A DNA stretch of 60,191 nucleotides from assembly GCA_023409995.1 (NCBI GenBank), contig JAEYQN010000129.1, positions 1 to 60,191 of the forward strand. Reading direction: 5' to 3'. The notes beneath the pieces were generated by a model. That model searched no databases. It was not told the origin of the DNA and was given only the letters and a program-made list of their open reading frames with translations. Within the stretch, counting starts at the first letter, position 1. Each line of letters starts with the position of its first letter. A program made the position numbers and the translations under genes. Of this stretch, positions 5,202-15,548 are shown in pieces. Source of the DNA: Cyanobacteria bacterium OH_CBB_238. Its GTDB lineage: Bacteria > Cyanobacteriota > Vampirovibrionia > Gastranaerophilales > Gastranaerophilaceae.

Positions 5202-7109
5202 ATGAGTATCTTTTCTAAATTTCAGACATATTTAAATAAAATAAAACAAGTTGAAAATAATATTGTTTTAAGTACTACAGGCTTTTTAGAAGTTTATGAG
5301 AGAAATATTGCCCTTGAGCAAGAGATTGAACTCAGGACGAAAGAACTTAATCAAGCCAATCAAACGTTACTAACCTTGAGTAATATTTGGGACATGATGA
5401 ACTCTTCTCAGCCTTTATCAAATGTTCTTGAAAAAATTGTAAATTCTCTACATGGTGAAATGGGTTATGTTAATAGTACTATAATTCAGCTCGAAGAGGA
5501 TACTAAAGGGAAATTTTTTATTCCTAAGTCTTATTCCATGTCTAATGTTGTTCAGATGATAATAGACGAAAGTAATAATAACGACAAAATATTTAAAGTT
5601 CCTTACCACGAAGAATCCATTCTTGTAAAAGTTTTGAAAGAAAAAAGAGTTCATTATACTCAAGATATTGATGAATTTTTTAAAGATATATTGGATTCTT
5701 TTTCTGATGAATTTGTTGATAAAATTTTAAAAGAAGCAACGAGTAAATCCCTTATCGTTGTTCCCTTATATAAACATGACAGCGCCTTTGGTTGTCTAAC
5801 TGTATTCTCAGAAAGAGATATGCCTACTGATACGGAGCTCAACTTTCTGAATTTATTTGCAAATCAGATTGAGCTGGCTATAACAATTGCAGGTTTGTTT
5901 GAAGAGGTTAAAAAACAAGCAGTTACAGATCCTTTGACGGGGCTTTATAATAGAAGATTCTTTGAAGATAATATTGTAAAAGAAGCTGAAAGATCTTTAA
6001 GATTGAAACAGCCATTTTCTTTAATTTCGTTGGATTTGGATTATCTAAAGAAAATTAATGACACATATGGTCACCAATATGGCGATATCGCAATCAAAAC
6101 CATAGCTGAGGTTATAAAGAAAAAGGCTCGATCAATAGATATTCCAGCCAGAATTGGCGGCGAGGAATTCAATGTTCTCTTGCCAGGTATAGATTCTTAT
6201 GGTGCACTTATCGCGGCAGAACGTGTAAGAGCAGCAATAGAAGCAGAAAATGTTGAAAAGGTTGGTCATATTACAGCAAGTATAGGTGTTGCTACTTTTC
6301 TAGAACATAGTGATAGAATCGATGAGCTTGTAGAACTTGCGGATCAGGCTATGTACAAAGCAAAAGTAAGTGGAAGAAATCAGGTTCAAATTACAAAGCC
6401 TCAAAAAGATTCCGATTGGCAACAAGTTGCTGTTGGCGCATTCCTTGACATTTTGACAAAAAAGAGAATTCCTGTTCCCGAAGATATTGCAAAAACATTA
6501 TCTTGCAAACTTGATACAGCTAATGTTATTGGCAAAAATTCAAAAGATGTACTGTATTCGGTTGTTGATATGATTTCTCAATCATATAATAATATGCATA
6601 AACTTGGTGAGACTAAGTCAAAATTGCTATTGGCTGTTTTACTTGCTAAAAAATTAGATTTAACCAAAATAGAAATAGATAAGCTGAAAATAGCCATGTT
6701 GCTTTATGATATTGGTAACAGTATGATTCCTGGTGCTATTTTTAATAAATCAGGTCCTTTGACTCCAGAAGAGAAATCGCAAGTTGAAGAACATCCCGTT
6801 ATTGCTGCTCGAGAAATACTGAAGCCTATTTCAAATATTCAAGATATTATTCCTATAATTGAATATCACCATGAATACTGGGATGGAACCGGATACCCAA
6901 ATAAAATTTCAGGCAATGAAATACCAATTACGTCTCAGATTATTCTTTTAGTTGATGCATTTTTTGCTCTTACCCAAGATCGTCCTTATAGAAAAGCTTA
7001 TAGCGTTGAAAAGGCAATTGAAATAATTCGTTGTGGCAGTGGTAAACAGTGGAACGAAAAGCTTGTTGATGAATTTGTTTTTGTTGTCAGGAGTGACAGC
7101 TTTGTCTAA
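5202..7109 (+). CDS. GAF-GGDEF diguanylate cyclase with degenerate HD-GYP-like domain
   Basis: 635 residues. A short coiled coil (about 25-60) leads to a GAF-like sensor (about 60-235), a GGDEF domain (about 245-395) and an HD-GYP-like domain (about 410-625). The GGDEF signature is intact (GGEEF, residues 319-323), with an RxxD inhibitory site at 310-313 exactly five residues upstream, so c-di-GMP synthesis with product inhibition is expected. In the HD part the HD-x-GK motif reads Y502-D503-I-G-N506, while H531, H556-H557, the DGTGYP loop (561-566) and D585 remain. Loss of the first His suggests weak or absent phosphodiesterase activity. A TATAAT at 5171-5176 may be its -10 box. The next gene overlaps its stop. 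Confidence 0.9.
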   Translation: MSIFSKFQTYLNKIKQVENNIVLSTTGFLEVYERNIALEQEIELRTKELNQANQTLLTLSNIWDMMNSSQPLSNVLEKIVNSLHGEMGYVNSTIIQLEEDTKGKFFIPKSYSMSNVVQMIIDESNNNDKIFKVPYHEESILVKVLKEKRVHYTQDIDEFFKDILDSFSDEFVDKILKEATSKSLIVVPLYKHDSAFGCLTVFSERDMPTDTELNFLNLFANQIELAITIAGLFEEVKKQAVTDPLTGLYNRRFFEDNIVKEAERSLRLKQPFSLISLDLDYLKKINDTYGHQYGDIAIKTIAEVIKKKARSIDIPARIGGEEFNVLLPGIDSYGALIAAERVRAAIEAENVEKVGHITASIGVATFLEHSDRIDELVELADQAMYKAKVSGRNQVQITKPQKDSDWQQVAVGAFLDILTKKRIPVPEDIAKTLSCKLDTANVIGKNSKDVLYSVVDMISQSYNNMHKLGETKSKLLLAVLLAKKLDLTKIEIDKLKIAMLLYDIGNSMIPGAIFNKSGPLTPEEKSQVEEHPVIAAREILKPISNIQDIIPIIEYHHEYWDGTGYPNKISGNEIPITSQIILLVDAFFALTQDRPYRKAYSVEKAIEIIRCGSGKQWNEKLVDEFVFVVRSDSFV

Positions 7110-8378: not shown

Positions 8379-9335
8379 ATGCAAAATTTTGCAATAGGAA
8401 TTGATTTAGGTGGTACAAAGGTTCTTACGGCATTGGTTGATAAAAATACCGGTGAAGTTGTGCATTTTGTGAAGAAAAAAACAAAGAAAGACAAAGGCCC
8501 TGAAAAAATAATTCACAAAATAATCAAATCTATACATGAAATTTTTGAAGAACAACACCTATCGGTAAAAGACATTTCTTCAATAGGCATAGGTGCAGCA
8601 GGACAGGTTGATAGAGAAAAGGGAATAGTTATAGCAGCACCCAATCTGGATTGTTTCAATCTTGAGATAAAAGCTATAGTAGAAAAAGAATTCTCAATTC
8701 CTGTATTCCTAGGTAATGATGTTGAAATAGCGACATTAGGGGAATTTCATTTTGGGGCAGGAAAAGGTTACAAAGATTTTGTTTGTATATTTGTAGGAAC
8801 CGGAGTTGGATCAGGTTTGGTTCAAGATGGCCTTGTAAGAAGAGGAAGCTCTGGAACTGCGGGAGAAATTGGACATATTATAGTTGATGTCGGTGGTCGT
8901 CCCTGCGCTTGTGGTGGTAATGGCTGTTTAGAAGCATATGCTTCTCGCTTAGCCATAGAAAAAAGAATTGTTGGTGCTTTAAAAAAGGGAAGGACTTCAG
9001 ACATAACAAACTATCTTGAAGAAGGAAAATCTATAAAAACGAGTATGATAAAAAAGGCATTAGATAATCATGATGAGTTAGTGACTCAAAATATAGATGA
9101 AGCAGCAGAATATCTAGCCTGCGGTCTTGCCAGTGTTATTAACTTTTATAATCCAGGACTAATCATTCTTGGGGGTGGGCTGATTGATGCTATAGACTAT
9201 TTTTATAATAAATCCGTGAAAATTGCTAAAGCAAAAGCATTACCGACTCCATCAAAAAACATAGAATTTAAGAAAGCTCAATTGGGTGACTTTTCTGGGG
9301 TGATAGGTGCTGCTATTTTGCAGGAGTATCAATAA
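8379..9335 (+). CDS. ROK-family sugar kinase (glucokinase-like)
   Basis: About 318 residues with the ROK hallmarks: N-terminal phosphate loop IGIDLGGTKV, the GNDVEIATLGEFHFGAG region with the catalytic Asp, the GTGVGSGLV loop, and a zinc-binding CACGGNGCLEAYAS motif. ROK kinases phosphorylate glucose, N-acetylglucosamine or related sugars with ATP; this looks closest to glucokinase. An ATG at 8367 is also in frame, but GGAG ending six bases before 8379 favours the second ATG, which also gives the usual short N-terminus. TATAAT at 8348-8353 is a likely -10 box. The gene's end overlaps the following minus-strand gene by 23 bases. Confidence 0.88.
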   Translation: MQNFAIGIDLGGTKVLTALVDKNTGEVVHFVKKKTKKDKGPEKIIHKIIKSIHEIFEEQHLSVKDISSIGIGAAGQVDREKGIVIAAPNLDCFNLEIKAIVEKEFSIPVFLGNDVEIATLGEFHFGAGKGYKDFVCIFVGTGVGSGLVQDGLVRRGSSGTAGEIGHIIVDVGGRPCACGGNGCLEAYASRLAIEKRIVGALKKGRTSDITNYLEEGKSIKTSMIKKALDNHDELVTQNIDEAAEYLACGLASVINFYNPGLIILGGGLIDAIDYFYNKSVKIAKAKALPTPSKNIEFKKAQLGDFSGVIGAAILQEYQ

Positions 9336-9696
9336 GAGCTGACGATTGACAGTAGTTGTGCTTATGATTGTAATCATCTAAAGATTTGGCTAAGTCGCTG
9401 CAGGTGTAGTCCTTATTTAGTTCAACCAATTTATTTAATTCTTTTTCACTGTGGGTTATTTTATTTAATTTTTTTAATATTTCTGCTTTTTCATAAAGAA
9501 TTTGAGTATTATATTTATCAAATGGTTCTATCATTTTCAGATACTCAAGGGCTTTATCGTATTGATTATTGGTTGAATATAATGAGGCAATTTCCAAATA
9601 ATCCAGCACAGTATCCCCCGTGACACAAATTTGTGAAAAACAGGGGATACAAATTAATATATATGTTAATACGGTTATCGCTCTTTTATGACTCAT
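9313..9696 (-). CDS. Small exported TPR-like protein
   Basis: 127 residues. An N-terminal signal peptide (residues 1-21, TVLTYILICIPCFS) is followed by two to three degenerate tetratricopeptide-like helical pairs (LEIASLYSTNNQYDKALEYL and the ILYEKAEILKKLNKITHSEKEL region). A Cys in the signal region could make it a lipoprotein, but the lipobox is not clear. The start overlaps the end of the preceding hybrid-cluster-like gene by 11 bases, so it is probably the last gene of that operon. TPRs usually bind proteins; a periplasmic adaptor role is inferred only. Confidence 0.6.
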   Translation of the reverse strand: MSHKRAITVLTYILICIPCFSQICVTGDTVLDYLEIASLYSTNNQYDKALEYLKMIEPFDKYNTQILYEKAEILKKLNKITHSEKELNKLVELNKDYTCSDLAKSLDDYNHKHNYCQSSALIDTPAK

Positions 9697-11308
9697 AACC
9701 TGTTTGCTTCAATATTGTATGTAAATCGTCTTTCGGGTTCCCTTTCATATATTTAACATCAAATATATCGTTCAGACCTTTTATTAGTGATGGATTAACT
9801 GCTGTTGGGCAACAATTTCCAAGGTAAATGCTATTTAGTCCAAGTGCTTTTAAATTTAATATGTGAGATATTGTTTGCATATTACACTGGGTTAAAAACA
9901 CGGATATTTTATTTAGCTCTTCTTGTGAAATTCTCTCAACAATAGTGTTTAAAATATAGTAAATAAGAGAATATCCATAGAATGAATCTAAGTGCCAAAC
10001 ATTGTCCTTTTTCTTATCAAATGAAAGCGAGATTGTGTAACAATCATCTGGAATACTGTCAATTAAGGAGTCTATATAAAGGTCTTTTGTTGGGTATTGA
10101 CTGATCAAGTCAACTATAAATAAATGCTTAATTTGATTTGTTTTTAATTTGTTTAATATTTCATTTAGTTTTACAGTTACTTCTTCTTTATTATACCCAA
10201 CCTTTAATTTTCCTATTTCGACATCATGTTTAAATCCTTTCGCTTCTTTTGCGGCTTGAATTAGAGGGGCCAAATCATTATTTTCTATTTTGGATATGCC
10301 AAAAGCTGAATGAGAATCAGATGTAAATATTCGTCCTCTTATTATATCAACATTGGGTTGAGAATTTTTTGAAATAAGAATCGCTCCAGGAAATGAAGCA
10401 AAATCCATTTGAATATTGTTAGAGCCTCTGTGAAAATGACCGGTTAAATTTGGATATTGCTGAATTTTTTTTAAGCTATGGGCAATTAACATTTCGTTGT
10501 GAGTATAAACTCTTATGTCCTCATTCTCTGTGGCTTTTAAGACTTCTTCCAAATCTTTTATAAAGTGACCTGAGACAAGAATAGCATGGCCTTCTTTTAA
10601 ATCCAGAGACACTTCTTTTTCATTAATACCATCGTATTCTTCCAAAAATACTTCTCTTAGTTGTTCCATTATTTTTAATGTTACTTTGCTGAATTCGTTT
10701 ATTTTTGCTAGCCATTTTTCGTCTGGCGTTGTTGGAAAGTTTGTTGTATTTAATAATTTAATTACAGCATCTTTGCTTTCCTCACATTCTCTTCCGTAAT
10801 TTTCTATTTCTACTAAGTGTAAACAAGCGTTTTTAATTAAACTCATCATGACTTCATATAGTGTTTTTTTATTTTCAGAAAGAATGGTGTTTTTTATAAT
10901 TGATTGTCTTTCACCTTCGTTTATTGCTGAAATTATATCGAATGTTCCTGCTTTTAAGTCATAGGATGGCTTTAATGGTTGAAAGGTTGTACCGTGCTTC
11001 TGGCATACACCATAGTACTTTTCTTCAAGAATTGTTCTATCTTCTTTTATTTCTTCTATTATTTCTTTAAATTCGTCTCGCTTAAAGTCCATATTTACAA
11101 AAACTAAAGAAATGTATTGAATTACCTTGTTTCTAATTTCGCTTGTATCAATGGATAGATCGGAAAGTTTAACGATATAGTAAGCGATGTGTTTTAATTC
11201 ACATAGCAATAACTCTTTTAACGACAAAATCGAAGGGTCAAATGAAAAAACACTTGGAGAGTTCCCTTCGTTACAAATTGGATTATCATAATTAAAAAAT
11301 ATACTCAT
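9686..11308 (-). CDS. Hybrid cluster protein (hydroxylamine reductase/prismane) homologue lacking cluster ligands
   Basis: 540 residues, about the length of hybrid cluster protein (HCP). The middle aligns by eye with HCP: ILVSGHFIKDLEEVL (HCP VSGHDLxDLExLL), VYTHNEMLIAH (VYTHGEMLPAH), YPNLTGHF, FPGAILISKNS (FPGPILxTTNC) and RIFTS. Of the seven hybrid-cluster ligands known from Desulfovibrio HCP, only the His (H248) and first Glu (E272) remain. The four Cys positions become S316, I402, F430 and G445, and the second Glu becomes N476. The N-terminal Cys set for the 4Fe-4S cluster is absent. It should therefore hold neither cluster and cannot be a normal HCP. It follows a glutaredoxin gene and precedes a secreted TPR protein. 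Confidence 0.75.
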   Translation of the reverse strand: MSIFFNYDNPICNEGNSPSVFSFDPSILSLKELLLCELKHIAYYIVKLSDLSIDTSEIRNKVIQYISLVFVNMDFKRDEFKEIIEEIKEDRTILEEKYYGVCQKHGTTFQPLKPSYDLKAGTFDIISAINEGERQSIIKNTILSENKKTLYEVMMSLIKNACLHLVEIENYGRECEESKDAVIKLLNTTNFPTTPDEKWLAKINEFSKVTLKIMEQLREVFLEEYDGINEKEVSLDLKEGHAILVSGHFIKDLEEVLKATENEDIRVYTHNEMLIAHSLKKIQQYPNLTGHFHRGSNNIQMDFASFPGAILISKNSQPNVDIIRGRIFTSDSHSAFGISKIENNDLAPLIQAAKEAKGFKHDVEIGKLKVGYNKEEVTVKLNEILNKLKTNQIKHLFIVDLISQYPTKDLYIDSLIDSIPDDCYTISLSFDKKKDNVWHLDSFYGYSLIYYILNTIVERISQEELNKISVFLTQCNMQTISHILNLKALGLNSIYLGNCCPTAVNPSLIKGLNDIFDVKYMKGNPKDDLHTILKQTGYES

Positions 11309-11328: not shown

Positions 11329-11598
11329 CTACTCATCCTTTAAAAGCGTTTGCAATTCCTCCGTCTCAATGAGCTTTTCAAGATCATCGCAACCGCCCAT
11401 ATGTTTGCCACCAATTATTATTTGTGGCACTGTTACAACACCTTTAATGTTGTAGTAATCTCCAAGTTCTTTTCTATAGACGTCTTCATTTTCTGTTATA
11501 TCTATTTCTTTGAACTCAATATTTTGTTCTTTCAAAAGTTCTTTTGCTTTATGACAAAAAGGACAATAATTAACTGTGTATATTTCTACTTTTTTCAT
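11329..11598 (-). CDS. grxC: Glutaredoxin
   Basis: 89 residues with the full glutaredoxin fold: KKVEIYTVNYCPFCHKAKEL with the dithiol C-P-F-C active site, the TVPQIIIGG cis-Pro glutathione-binding loop, and HMGGCDDLEKL. Such proteins reduce disulfides using glutathione or an equivalent thiol. An extra Cys lies in the GGCDD motif. The start has a GCAGGGA upstream. The gene is first in an apparent operon with the hybrid-cluster-like and TPR genes; 20 bases separate it from the next. A hairpin covering its ribosome-binding region separates it from the upstream TPR gene. Confidence 0.92.
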   Translation of the reverse strand: MKKVEIYTVNYCPFCHKAKELLKEQNIEFKEIDITENEDVYRKELGDYYNIKGVVTVPQIIIGGKHMGGCDDLEKLIETEELQTLLKDE

Positions 11599-11674: not shown

Positions 11675-12448
11675 TTAAGAAGTAATCCTTTTGATAAGAT
11701 TAGAGATTGTTTCTTTTTCTTCTTCTGGGAGATCAAACTCGATATAGTCATTGAAATATTCAATTGCGTCTTGATTATCGCCTCTTGCCATAAAGAGGAT
11801 TCCTAATTTTTTGTAAGAAGGATGAAATTTCTCATTTAGAGCAATCGTTTTTAAATGATTTGAGATGGCCTTATCTATATCATCATTGGCTTCGTAAGCA
11901 AGTGCCGTTTGATAATATATTAATGGATTACTGTCTATCTGCTCCAGTACGCTCTCATAGCAAGAAATAGCATTGTCGTAATCGCCTAATTCAAAGTGTG
12001 CATTTCCTAAATCCCAATATGCATCTATATTTTTTGGTGAAATGTCAAGAATTGAATTTAGCTGATCTATTGCCATATCAAATCTTGAATCTTCAATGTA
12101 GAATCTTGCGAGGCAGTGGCTCAAAACTATATTATCAGGAATAAGCGATACTGCATTTTCTAATAAATTTATTGCATCTTCTACTCTTCTGTTTTTATAG
12201 TATATGTCAGATAGATTTACATAAGTTTCAACGTTTTTAAAATTATTCGATAATGCTTTGATATAATAATCTTCAGCAGATTCATCATCTGCCATTTTTG
12301 CATAGCATAATCCGATGTTGTTAAGTATTCTCGCATCATCGCTATTGTCTGTTAATGCTTCTTCAAAATGTTTTATTGCTTCTTCAAATGCTTGTTTTTT
12401 AAAGCATTCAAGAGCTTTTTCAATTTTTTCGTCCATTTTATTTTCCAT
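11675..12448 (-). CDS. Tetratricopeptide repeat protein
   Basis: 257 residues made almost wholly of TPR units, about six and a half. Typical units include GLCYAKMADDESAEDYYIKA, AFEEAIKHFEEAL and LGNAHFELGDYDNAISCYES, with the canonical Gly/Ala/Tyr/Pro positions. There is no signal peptide or membrane segment, so it should act in the cytoplasm as a protein-binding scaffold. The start could be the first ATG or the one four codons on; neither has a strong Shine-Dalgarno. It is divergent from yebC with 54 bases between them. Confidence 0.85.
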   Translation of the reverse strand: MENKMDEKIEKALECFKKQAFEEAIKHFEEALTDNSDDARILNNIGLCYAKMADDESAEDYYIKALSNNFKNVETYVNLSDIYYKNRRVEDAINLLENAVSLIPDNIVLSHCLARFYIEDSRFDMAIDQLNSILDISPKNIDAYWDLGNAHFELGDYDNAISCYESVLEQIDSNPLIYYQTALAYEANDDIDKAISNHLKTIALNEKFHPSYKKLGILFMARGDNQDAIEYFNDYIEFDLPEEEKETISNLIKRITS

Positions 12449-12502: not shown

Positions 12503-13252
12503 ATGTCAGGACATTCAAAGTGGTCTACAATAAAACATAAAAAAGCCAAAGTTGATGCCCAAAGAGGTGTTGCTTTTCAAAAATTCTCACGAGAATTAAT
12601 CGTGTCTGCCAAAATGGGTGGGGCTGATCCAAATTCCAATTTTAGATTGAGAACTGCTATTGAACGAGCAAAAGCGGCAGGATTACCAAATGATAATATT
12701 AAGAGAGCTATTGAAAAAGGTGCTGGTGGGTTAGGCTCTGATAATTATGAAGAGTTAACTTATGAGGGTTATGGTGCCGGGGGTACCGCTATTTTTATAG
12801 AAGCAATGACTGACAACAGAAATCGAACAGCAGGTGATTTGAGAAGCTATTTTACTAAATTCAATGGAAACCTTGGAGAAAGCGGTTGTGTAGGTTGGAT
12901 GTTTAAGCAGGTTGGTCAGATTGTCTTTGATCAAAAATTAGATTATGAGCAGTTGTTTGAGGCTGCTATAGAAGCAAATGCTCAAGATGTATTAGATGAA
13001 GATGATGAATTTCTGGTAATAACATCTGTAGAAGATTTACAATCTTGTGCAGAAGCTCTTGAAAAATCAGGATTTGATGCAAAATCTGCAGAAGTTATAA
13101 GAAGGCCTGAAAACTCCATAGAGGTTAATGACCCTCAAACTGCAACTCAAATATTAAAGCTTATGGATAGACTTGAAGAACATGATGATGTTCAAAATGT
13201 TTACTCAAACTTTGACATTTCAGATGAAATTATGGAGAAAATAAATTTATAA
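12503..13252 (+). CDS. yebC: YebC/PmpR family protein
   Basis: 249 residues, full length, beginning with the family signature MSGHSKWSTIKHKKAKVDAQ, then GLPNDNIKRAIEKGAG and YEGYGAGGTAIFIEAMTDN. Older work describes the family as transcription regulators; later work links it to translation of proline-rich stretches. A strong GAAGGAG lies before the ATG. The gene has no operon partner. Its mRNA would run into the short antisense-strand small gene downstream. Confidence 0.95.
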   Translation: MSGHSKWSTIKHKKAKVDAQRGVAFQKFSRELIVSAKMGGADPNSNFRLRTAIERAKAAGLPNDNIKRAIEKGAGGLGSDNYEELTYEGYGAGGTAIFIEAMTDNRNRTAGDLRSYFTKFNGNLGESGCVGWMFKQVGQIVFDQKLDYEQLFEAAIEANAQDVLDEDDEFLVITSVEDLQSCAEALEKSGFDAKSAEVIRRPENSIEVNDPQTATQILKLMDRLEEHDDVQNVYSNFDISDEIMEKINL

Positions 13253-13526: not shown

Positions 13527-15548
13527 CTATCTTGTTGTTTGACAACCGAATGCGATTGTAACTTTTTCTTTTGGGTTGATTGAGGAAACTTTCATTCCTT
13601 TTGGATCAACCAAGTAAGTTAGTTCATCACCAGTGTATTGGAATATACCCATAGTTCCAGATAATGCTGTTCTTGTTACATCAACAGGCGCTGTAACTAT
13701 TTGTTTTCCTACGTCTTGGTAACTTCTACCAGCTGCCTTGAATTGACCGGTAAATAATTCGCCAGTGGCAACACCAAAGCCTTGTACAGAGTTGTCAACT
13801 GCGTTACTAGCTGTGACAATTGCACCACCAACTGTTCTACCTACGTTACCTAACAAGCCACCAACCCATGTGAATGGAAGTTGAATTGTTCTTACGAATC
13901 CGTTAGGAGCTTTTACTTTGTTTACTTGGGCAGAAAGTACTTGTTGAGGTAGATCTGCTTTACAATCTCCATATTGGATTGTATCGAAAGATAATCTTAT
14001 AGCACCTTGATCACATTTTGTTGGTCTTACAACTTCAAGAACTTTACCATTAACTCTTGACCCACAAGGGTAGCTAACGCCGTTAATTGTAACTTCTTCA
14101 GTTGTTTCAGCTGCGAATTGGTCTCCAATGTGAGCTGCCTTAGCGGTTACATTATCCTTAAATGCAAGTTGTAATGTTGGAATTTTTACGACATCAGTTT
14201 TTTCCATATAAGCAGCGCCGCCGGCACATCCACATCCTGCAGATGCCGTTGCTTTATCTACACTACTGTAGCCTAATGCAACTCTGACATTTTCAAGCAT
14301 AGAAGCAATTTCTGCACGATTTGCATCTTTGTTTGGTGCGATTAATGATGGACTTGGCGCATCAGATAAAGCACCTGCTTGAATAGCTTTAGCTACAGGA
14401 ATTTTAGCCCAATCAGGTACATTTGATGCATCACAGTATTGGTTTAGTATTTCATTAGCTTTACATTCATCCATTGGGCAATTGATACCTTTTGAAAGAA
14501 TAGTAAATGCTTCAGCACGGCTAACAGGTTCATTTGGTTTGAATATATCATGAGGATATCCAGCCATCATACCGTTAGCTACTGCGTTATTGATAACTTT
14601 ATTTGCCCAGTGATGTTTTGGTACATCTTTGAATGACTTTTGTGGGCAAGTCATTTTGTCATTTAGGTTGAATCCTTTTACAACAAGTGAAGCCATTTCT
14701 GCTCTTGATACAGGTAGATTTGGTTTAAATGTTCTATCAGGGTAACCAGCAATGATATTATTTTCAGTTAATTTGTTGATGTCACAACCAGCCCAAAATC
14801 CGCTAGGAACATCTTCAAAAGCACTCACTAACGGTGCTGCTGCACCTGTAGGAGTTGAAATGTCAAAAGGAACAAATGACTTTTGAATTGCTTCTAAACT
14901 TGAATTTGTGTGAATCTGTACAGGACATCCTGCTCCGTCAAGTTTTGCAGGATCTCTGCTTACAGGAATACCACTCATTGGGCTATAGCTGCCACCATTA
15001 AGTTCTGGTAAAGAGGCTGCTGCTCCAGTACAACCACATTTTTCTCCGACAGGAACACCTGGAGAGATGTATGCTGCTGCGCCAGTTACCCCTGTGTTTG
15101 TTGATTCACCTATGTATAATCCATCGCTATGTTCACCTATTAATTGGTTTTCGCCATAGATAGCATTTGGGTATGCATAAGTTTGCTGTTTGTGTTTTTC
15201 ATCTTTACAGCTAGGGCAGATAGCACATGCTGGTGGAGTTGGACAGTCACAAGCCGGTGCCGGTGGGCAGTCACATTTTGTTGGACTTGGTTGGCAAGGG
15301 CATGCGGCTCCTGTTGTACATGGGTCTATCTTTGGTTGTGGACAACTACAGTTGTCGAAGTCTGATAAACAGCTTGGGCAAGTTGCCGTTTGTGGTGTCA
15401 CAGGAGTTGGGCATCCAGACAAAGGGCAAGCTGCCAAAGTGCTTGTTGACGGGTCAGTTGTCAAATCTTGGGTAAGACCCGCGTAAGCAGTGCTTGCCAT
15501 AATACCTATTGATAAAGCAGCGGCAAGCGTAAATTTGTTGATATTCAT
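13527..15548 (-). CDS. Secreted cysteine-rich SLH-domain surface protein
   Basis: 673 residues. A signal peptide (1-23, cleavage after AYA) is followed by a Cys- and Pro-rich region (about 40-115) with 16 cysteines, many as CxC or CPxC. A Gly/Ala-rich linker follows. Next come three SLH repeats at about 243-293, 305-355 and 370-425; the first two are canonical (AGYPDRTFKPNLPVSRAEMA), the third weaker. A beta-rich C-terminal region ends the protein. There are about 30 Cys in total. SLH domains anchor proteins to the cell wall or to peptidoglycan-linked polymer. The number of cysteines suggests disulfide cross-linking on the outside. A strong AAGGAGG and its own terminator suggest high expression. 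The exact role is unknown. Confidence 0.85.
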   Translation of the reverse strand: MNINKFTLAAALSIGIMASTAYAGLTQDLTTDPSTSTLAACPLSGCPTPVTPQTATCPSCLSDFDNCSCPQPKIDPCTTGAACPCQPSPTKCDCPPAPACDCPTPPACAICPSCKDEKHKQQTYAYPNAIYGENQLIGEHSDGLYIGESTNTGVTGAAAYISPGVPVGEKCGCTGAAASLPELNGGSYSPMSGIPVSRDPAKLDGAGCPVQIHTNSSLEAIQKSFVPFDISTPTGAAAPLVSAFEDVPSGFWAGCDINKLTENNIIAGYPDRTFKPNLPVSRAEMASLVVKGFNLNDKMTCPQKSFKDVPKHHWANKVINNAVANGMMAGYPHDIFKPNEPVSRAEAFTILSKGINCPMDECKANEILNQYCDASNVPDWAKIPVAKAIQAGALSDAPSPSLIAPNKDANRAEIASMLENVRVALGYSSVDKATASAGCGCAGGAAYMEKTDVVKIPTLQLAFKDNVTAKAAHIGDQFAAETTEEVTINGVSYPCGSRVNGKVLEVVRPTKCDQGAIRLSFDTIQYGDCKADLPQQVLSAQVNKVKAPNGFVRTIQLPFTWVGGLLGNVGRTVGGAIVTASNAVDNSVQGFGVATGELFTGQFKAAGRSYQDVGKQIVTAPVDVTRTALSGTMGIFQYTGDELTYLVDPKGMKVSSINPKEKVTIAFGCQTTR

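What the first reader, a model, noticed from the sequence alone, without database searches (positions are those of the whole stretch)
9686..11308. A hybrid-cluster-protein homologue that has lost most metal ligands, encoded with a glutaredoxin
Seen: several HCP motifs (VSGHFIKDLEEVL, VYTHNEMLIAH, FPGAILISKNS) are kept, but by eye alignment the four hybrid-cluster Cys become S316, I402, F430 and G445, the second Glu becomes N476, and the N-terminal Cys set is absent. Known: HCP uses these residues for its two clusters. Inference: a pseudoenzyme or a protein given a new role, perhaps redox signalling with the adjacent glutaredoxin and the exported TPR protein.
Basis: partly seen in the sequence, partly recalled or inferred. 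Interest (0 to 1): 0.78.

Follow-up and report, generated by a model that had tools for sequence, protein, structure and literature searches.

The report
Cluster-less hybrid cluster protein beside glutaredoxin
In a group of gut-dwelling, non-photosynthetic relatives of cyanobacteria, a copy of a well-known metal enzyme has lost the metal-holding residues of its main cluster, gained a new pair of cysteines, and usually sits beside a glutaredoxin gene, which suggests an old metalloenzyme fold reused for cysteine-based redox work.

The parts
9686..11308 (-). ligand-less HCP homologue, 540 aa
11329..11598 (-). dithiol glutaredoxin (CPFC), 89 aa, 20 nt upstream of the HCP homologue
   Evidence: PF00462 E 3.9e-22; glutaredoxin upstream in 60 of 80 related loci
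11675..12448 (-). TPR-repeat protein, 257 aa, first gene of a recurring TPR-glutaredoxin-HCP-like run, divergent from the gene matching YebC-like neighbours (12503-13252)
   Evidence: upstream in 26 of 80 loci. The name YebC is recalled from the sequence, not from a family search
9313..9696 (-). small TPR protein with a signal-like start (by eye), overlapping the HCP-like stop codon; not found beside the family elsewhere
   Evidence: 0 of 80 loci
9884..9886 (-). codon of Cys475 (new; Tyr/Phe in 27 canonical HCP rows)
9812..9814 (-). codon of Cys499 (new; Ser/Thr in 27 canonical HCP rows)
9809..9811 (-). codon of Cys500 (subclade I; Leu/Met in 27 canonical HCP rows)
11273..11275 (-). codon of Cys12, the only Cys of the N-terminal segment in this protein
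10361..10363 (-). codon of Ser316 (ligand Cys312 of D. vulgaris HCP)
10103..10105 (-). codon of Ile402 (persulfide Cys406)
10019..10021 (-). codon of Phe430 (ligand Cys434)
9881..9883 (-). codon of Asn476 (ligand Glu494)

Best explanation
It is a duplicated hybrid cluster protein that gave up its hybrid cluster early in the Gastranaerophilales and was kept as a cysteine-based redox protein coupled to glutaredoxin and glutathione. Shown by sequence: HCP fold, loss of the hybrid-cluster ligands in one clade, strong purifying selection, a new Cys475/Cys499 pair, a glutaredoxin gene a few bases upstream in most of the 80 loci read, and glutathione-synthesis gene families in each of 20 genomes tested. 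Inferred: Cys475 and Cys499 lie side by side at the mouth of the old cluster pocket and form the working dithiol, oxidised by its substrate or signal and reduced by the neighbouring glutaredoxin at the expense of glutathione. The remaining N-terminal cysteine(s) form a second, separately dispensable element. The substrate (a nitrogen oxide, a nitrosothiol, a per- or polysulfide, or a protein partner) is not known.
For: None of 257 aligned members keeps two or more of the four hybrid-cluster Cys (145, 112); C459 is in a gap in all 257. One side of a branch, SH-aLRT 100, apart from canonical HCP and from partial-ligand paralogues (short search, 53 rows). dN/dS 0.032-0.125 in 11 pairs. C475 and C499 are both present in 270 of 280 rows and in none of 27 canonical rows; of the 10 exceptions 6 lost both and 4 lost one (the Fisher p of 9e-10 ignores relatedness). 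Merging rows at 90% identity leaves 259 clusters, 249 with both. A glutaredoxin lies directly upstream, same strand, gap -59 to +14 nt, in 60 of 80 loci, against 0 of 16 canonical HCP loci (one of these, L090, holds only 141 nt upstream). Four genes flanking canonical HCP were named: two Rrf2, one Crp-type, one cupin. In 16 of 20 genomes the adjacent glutaredoxin is among the PF00462 matches and in 8 of these 16 it is the only match (places set by eye). GCS2 and GSH-S_ATP families in 20 of 20 genomes. [quoted passage not shown] by the phmmer alignment, C475 equals Met433 and C499/C500 equal Ile457/Leu458.
Against: No coordinates of the model were available, so the distance C475-C499 was not measured. 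Adjacency of glutaredoxin may mark shared regulation rather than chemistry; 18 of 80 loci that hold upstream DNA have none adjacent, and 17 of 18 loci of the further set (mostly a shorter form) have none, though 14 of those 18 keep both Cys. C102 is as conserved as the pair (140 of 145) but is also common in canonical HCP. Two distinct glutaredoxin types, 23% identical, sit beside the two subclades, and four of the 60 have CPYS, not CxxC. PF02955 also rings in control genomes such as Bacillus subtilis, so it is weak evidence for glutathione on its own.
Confidence: 0.4

Rival explanations
1. Rebuilt metal site. The protein lost the hybrid cluster and half of the N-terminal [4Fe-4S] ligands and assembled a single four-Cys site, most likely Fe-S, from the remaining N-terminal Cys plus C475, C499 and, in subclade I, C500. 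Glutaredoxin helps to load or reduce it.
For: 134 of 150 rows have exactly four Cys in this set: 76 with two N-terminal Cys plus C475/C499, 58 with one N-terminal Cys plus C475/C499/C500, as if a ligand had moved; 92 of 112 further rows have exactly four too. The two loops that carry these Cys abut the [4Fe-4S] domain in a solved HCP (passages; mapping).
Against: The swap lies mainly on one branch of the tree, so it is close to one event. The two pairs are lost independently: 9 of 112 rows lack one or both N-terminal Cys while all 112 keep C475/C499; P0045, P0054, L119, L122 and L123 lost C475/C499 but keep two N-terminal Cys.
Confidence: 0.3
2. Non-catalytic scaffold or regulatory pseudoenzyme: the fold serves as a binding partner (of canonical HCP, of glutaredoxin or of TPR proteins) and the Cys pair is structural.
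For: Loss of the known catalytic ligands; TPR gene upstream in 26 of 80 loci.
Against: Only 104 of 286 genomes have an HCP above the enzyme cut-off while at least 233 carry the ligand-less form, so it cannot depend on canonical HCP throughout. A scaffold for other partners is not excluded.
Confidence: 0.2
3. Decaying pseudogene or assembly artefact.
For: An HCP homologue that fails the curated cut-off.
Against: Open frames, dN/dS 0.032-0.125, order-wide presence, conserved synteny.
Confidence: 0.02
4. A metal cluster is still bound in the old hybrid-cluster pocket by other residues.
For: Some HCP motif residues (G247, Y268, T269, mostly H270) are kept; C434 survives in 4 of 145 and 34 of 112 rows.
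Against: No Cys within 4 residues of the C312 or C406 position in any of 145 rows; in the window protein no Cys near any of the four positions.
Confidence: 0.05

Closest known systems
Class I hybrid cluster protein (D. vulgaris, M. thermolithotrophicus; NCBIfam TIGR01703, Pfam PF03063)
   Same: Fold over nearly the whole length, similar length, the VSGH, YTH-EML and FPGAI motifs.
   Different: All four hybrid-cluster Cys and the second Glu lost, N-terminal four-Cys site reduced to one or two, new C475/C499, glutaredoxin neighbour.
Class III HCP (M. marburgensis 7e0l) and the CODH superfamily
   Same: Same superfamily; the Mm HCP C67Y variant shows that the rest of the fold survives loss of the N-terminal cluster (PMC10502027, passages).
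   Different: The window protein aligns over the full length only with class I/II structures and has no cluster ligand set.
Partial-ligand HCP paralogues of the same order (L097, L098, L099, L100, L102)
   Same: Found in genomes of the same order, incomplete ligand sets, nearer to the ligand-less clade than to canonical HCP in the tree.
   Different: Keep different subsets: L102 the N-terminal four plus C312 and C406; L097/L098 C15, C21 and C312; L099/L100 C406 and C434.
Glutaredoxin 3 (TIGR02181)
   Same: Neighbour gene 11329-11598 is nearest this model, 87.9 bits against a cut-off of 90.
   Different: Partner, not the protein itself; two glutaredoxins of the second subclade were nearest Grx2 and YruB models, far below cut-off.

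Membership tests
Hybrid cluster protein (enzyme) | HCP fold and sequence homology | tested here: met
Hybrid cluster protein (enzyme) | score above the curated hydroxylamine reductase cut-off | tested here: not met
   194.7 against 360.8 bits
Hybrid cluster protein (enzyme) | four hybrid-cluster Cys | tested here: not met
   S316, I402, F430, gap; 27 of 27 canonical rows keep all four
Hybrid cluster protein (enzyme) | His and two Glu ligands | tested here: not met
   H248 and E272 kept, second Glu is N476
Hybrid cluster protein (enzyme) | N-terminal Cys-rich [4Fe-4S] motif | tested here: not met
   only C12
Hybrid cluster protein (enzyme) | hydroxylamine or NO reduction | not testable with these tools
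   needs purified protein
Ligand-less HCP clade of Gastranaerophilales (defined here) | falls in the clade, with C475 and C499 and without the hybrid-cluster Cys set | tested here: met
Glutaredoxin (neighbour gene) | PF00462 with CxxC active site | tested here: met
   E 3.9e-22, CPFC
CO dehydrogenase | C-cluster ligands | not tested

The most novel reading that the evidence does not exclude
An old Fe-S-O metalloenzyme fold has been emptied of its cluster and turned, across most of a bacterial order, into a glutathione/glutaredoxin-driven cysteine enzyme (or a rebuilt four-Cys metal protein) whose active site lies where the former N-terminal cluster domain met the second Glu ligand.
Probability: 0.4. 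Interest if true: 0.8.

Novelty: new variant of a known kind. Interest (0 to 1): 0.62.

Why it matters
HCP classes known so far are described as keeping their metal ligands throughout (PMC10502027, passages). An order-wide, selectively maintained HCP without them, tied to a glutaredoxin, would show that the HCP/CODH fold can work without its clusters and would offer a tractable route to what the fold does besides holding metal. It also warns that 'hydroxylamine reductase' names on such proteins are doubtful (two members, P0185 and P0201, carry that name from a source), and it points to a thiol redox system in little-studied Gastranaerophilales.

Tried and rejected
Own genome: not held, so it is unknown whether the window's own genome has a canonical HCP; the 60-kb window has no second HCP-family ORF. 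The downstream TPR as a partner: rejected. Simple decay: rejected. 'Replacement of canonical HCP': rejected as the sole story, because 15 of the 32 genomes have an HCP match over 370 bits besides the ligand-less one (counted by eye). An obligatory four-Cys site: first favoured, then lowered when the N-terminal and C475/C499 pairs were found to be lost independently. Suspected split or frameshifted genes in weakly scoring genomes: the 18 opened are open frames, 17 of them a shorter form of about 480-500 residues lacking the C434 region. Promoter and terminator scan: no excess over shuffles. No tRNA in the window. Paper searches: Gastranaerophilales + hybrid cluster protein, 0 papers; Melainabacteria + hydroxylamine reductase, 0; hybrid cluster protein + pseudoenzyme, 0; Gastranaerophilales + glutaredoxin, 1, a phage paper seen as a listing; other HCP searches seen as listings. 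I read passages only of PMC10502027, PMC10210160, PMC4773151 and PMC8003979. A flawed first count of N-terminal Cys was replaced. The Fisher tests ignore relatedness.

Limits of the samples: one search listed the best 120 of 569 matches, another the best 120 of 903 (112 of them new), and the latter was run with a profile of ligand-less members, so it favours such rows; one search kept 80 of 232 relatives. Rows dropped: P0035-P0038 (near-copies) and P0070, P0071 (incomplete) from the alignments on; L038 and L040 (incomplete genes) from the 145; CL091 was not recovered by my script and is not among the 27 canonical rows, though L091 is among the 16 canonical loci. The 280 rows hold a few repeats (274 clusters at 99.5% identity, 259 at 90%). 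The 215 of 286 was counted by hand from the table (best E below 1e-125; the 27 canonical rows reach at most 372 bits with the same profile). The subclade split was made by hand. Two of the 60 glutaredoxin gaps (-59) come from a mechanical choice of the earliest start.

Full report
What is there. The finding's ORF lies on the minus strand at 9686-11308 and encodes 540 aa. Upstream on the same strand are a dithiol glutaredoxin (11329-11598, gap 20 nt) and a TPR protein (11675-12448), with a YebC-like gene (name recalled) divergent beyond it; downstream a small TPR gene overlaps the stop codon. Homology to HCP is plain in Pfam, NCBIfam, PDB sequence and model-to-structure comparison, but the NCBIfam enzyme models are missed by a wide margin.

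Ligands. Aligned with canonical HCPs, the window protein has S316, I402, F430 and N476 where HCP has Cys312, Cys406, Cys434 and Glu494, and a gap at Cys459; H248 and E272 remain (D. vulgaris residue numbers are recalled and assigned by motif).

A family, not an accident. A protein search listed 71 proteins without the ligand set, the window's own among them, before the first canonical HCP (table). A scan of one genome per GTDB species gave 232 relatives, of which 80 were kept; all 80 score 416 bits or more with the ligand-less profile (the 27 canonical rows at most 372). Their record titles name Gastranaerophilales (one Avigastranaerophilus), Melainabacteria or Cyanobacteria, or only a bacterium. 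Across 145 members C312 and C406 are Cys in none, C434 in 4, C459 is in a gap in all, and Glu494 is kept in 5, while 27 of 27 canonical rows keep the seven hybrid-cluster ligands. A second set of 112 proteins, found with a profile of ligand-less members, gave C312 in 3, C406 in none, C434 in 34, never two together. The clade is one side of a branch with SH-aLRT 100 among 53 rows; a FastTree of 123 rows agrees on the separation from canonical HCP. dN/dS in 11 close pairs is 0.032-0.125. In 286 sampled genomes of the order, 274 have an HCP-family match, 104 one above the enzyme cut-off, and 215 one whose score lies above every canonical sequence tested with the same profile. Eighteen of the remaining 59 with a match were opened and all 18 carry ligand-less forms, mostly a shorter one; 12 of 286 have no match at all. 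Related paralogues keep partial ligand sets, so the order shows several stages or routes of ligand loss.

What was gained. Positions nearly fixed in the clade and different in canonical HCP include E32, N190, D302, R324, S427, C475, C499 and N505. C475 and C499 stand out: both are present in 139 of 145, 112 of 112 and 14 of 18 rows; over 280 rows 270 have both, 6 neither and 4 one. C475 lies one residue before, and C499 23 residues after, the position of Glu494. In the published M. [quoted passage not shown] by the alignment these regions carry the equivalents of C475 (Met433) and C499/C500 (Ile457/Leu458). The new Cys therefore probably face the place of the old N-terminal domain. That domain's own Cys are reduced: subclade II keeps C15 and C21 (74 of 80 each), subclade I has C12 (61 of 65) and adds C500 (64 of 65) (split by hand). 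Counting them together gives exactly four Cys in 134 of 150 rows and 92 of 112, which would suit a rebuilt four-Cys site; but the N-terminal and C-terminal pairs are lost independently, which suits two separate elements better.

Partner. With a profile iterated from the window's glutaredoxin, a glutaredoxin lies directly upstream on the same strand in 60 of 80 loci; of the other 20, two have no upstream DNA. Two types, 23% identical to each other, account for 30 loci each; presence or absence needs 3 changes on the tree. None of 16 canonical HCP loci has one within the DNA held, about 1-1.5 kb upstream in 15 and 141 nt in one. In 20 genomes searched with PF00462, 16 have the adjacent gene among their matches and in 8 it is the only match; the four genomes without an adjacent one have a glutaredoxin elsewhere. 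All 20 have the GCS2 and GSH-S_ATP families, so glutathione is probably made, with the reserve that PF02955 also rings in controls such as Bacillus subtilis. A TPR gene upstream of the glutaredoxin recurs in 26 of 80 loci, the downstream small TPR in none.

How it most likely works. Shown: fold, ligand loss, selection, Cys gain, gene order, glutathione gene families. Inferred: C475-C499 is a redox-active dithiol reduced by glutaredoxin. The substrate is unknown; because the parent fold handles nitrogen oxides, a nitrosative or sulfur-stress role is a reasonable first guess, no more. I give this 0.4, a rebuilt Fe-S or Zn site 0.3, a scaffold 0.2.

Known or new. It sits on a known fold but fails the defining features of the HCP enzyme, so it should not be filed as hydroxylamine reductase. 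I found no paper on it in the searches; most subscription papers are not held.

Noticed in passing
L035 6010-10875: Three ligand-less HCP genes in tandem in one Gastranaerophilales contig; L101 (G253) has two in tandem; several contigs of the protein search seem to carry two or three copies, judged by shared contig lengths.
   Followed up: partly
L097, L098, L099, L100, L102: HCP paralogues of the same order with different partial ligand sets, possible intermediate or parallel stages of cluster loss.
   Followed up: partly
L108-L124: A shorter ligand-less form (about 480-500 aa) without the C434 region and without adjacent glutaredoxin; L119, L122 and L123 also lost C475 and C499.
   Followed up: partly
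L081, L082, L085: Canonical HCP of the same order sits beside Rrf2 (L082, L085) or Crp-type (L081) regulators, in L082 also a cupin.
   Followed up: no
window 5202-7109 and 13527-15548: GAF-GGDEF-HD protein and an SLH-domain protein near the finding; ordinary neighbours.
   Followed up: no
P0185, P0201: Ligand-less members carry the source name 'hydroxylamine reductase', a probable misannotation.
   Followed up: no
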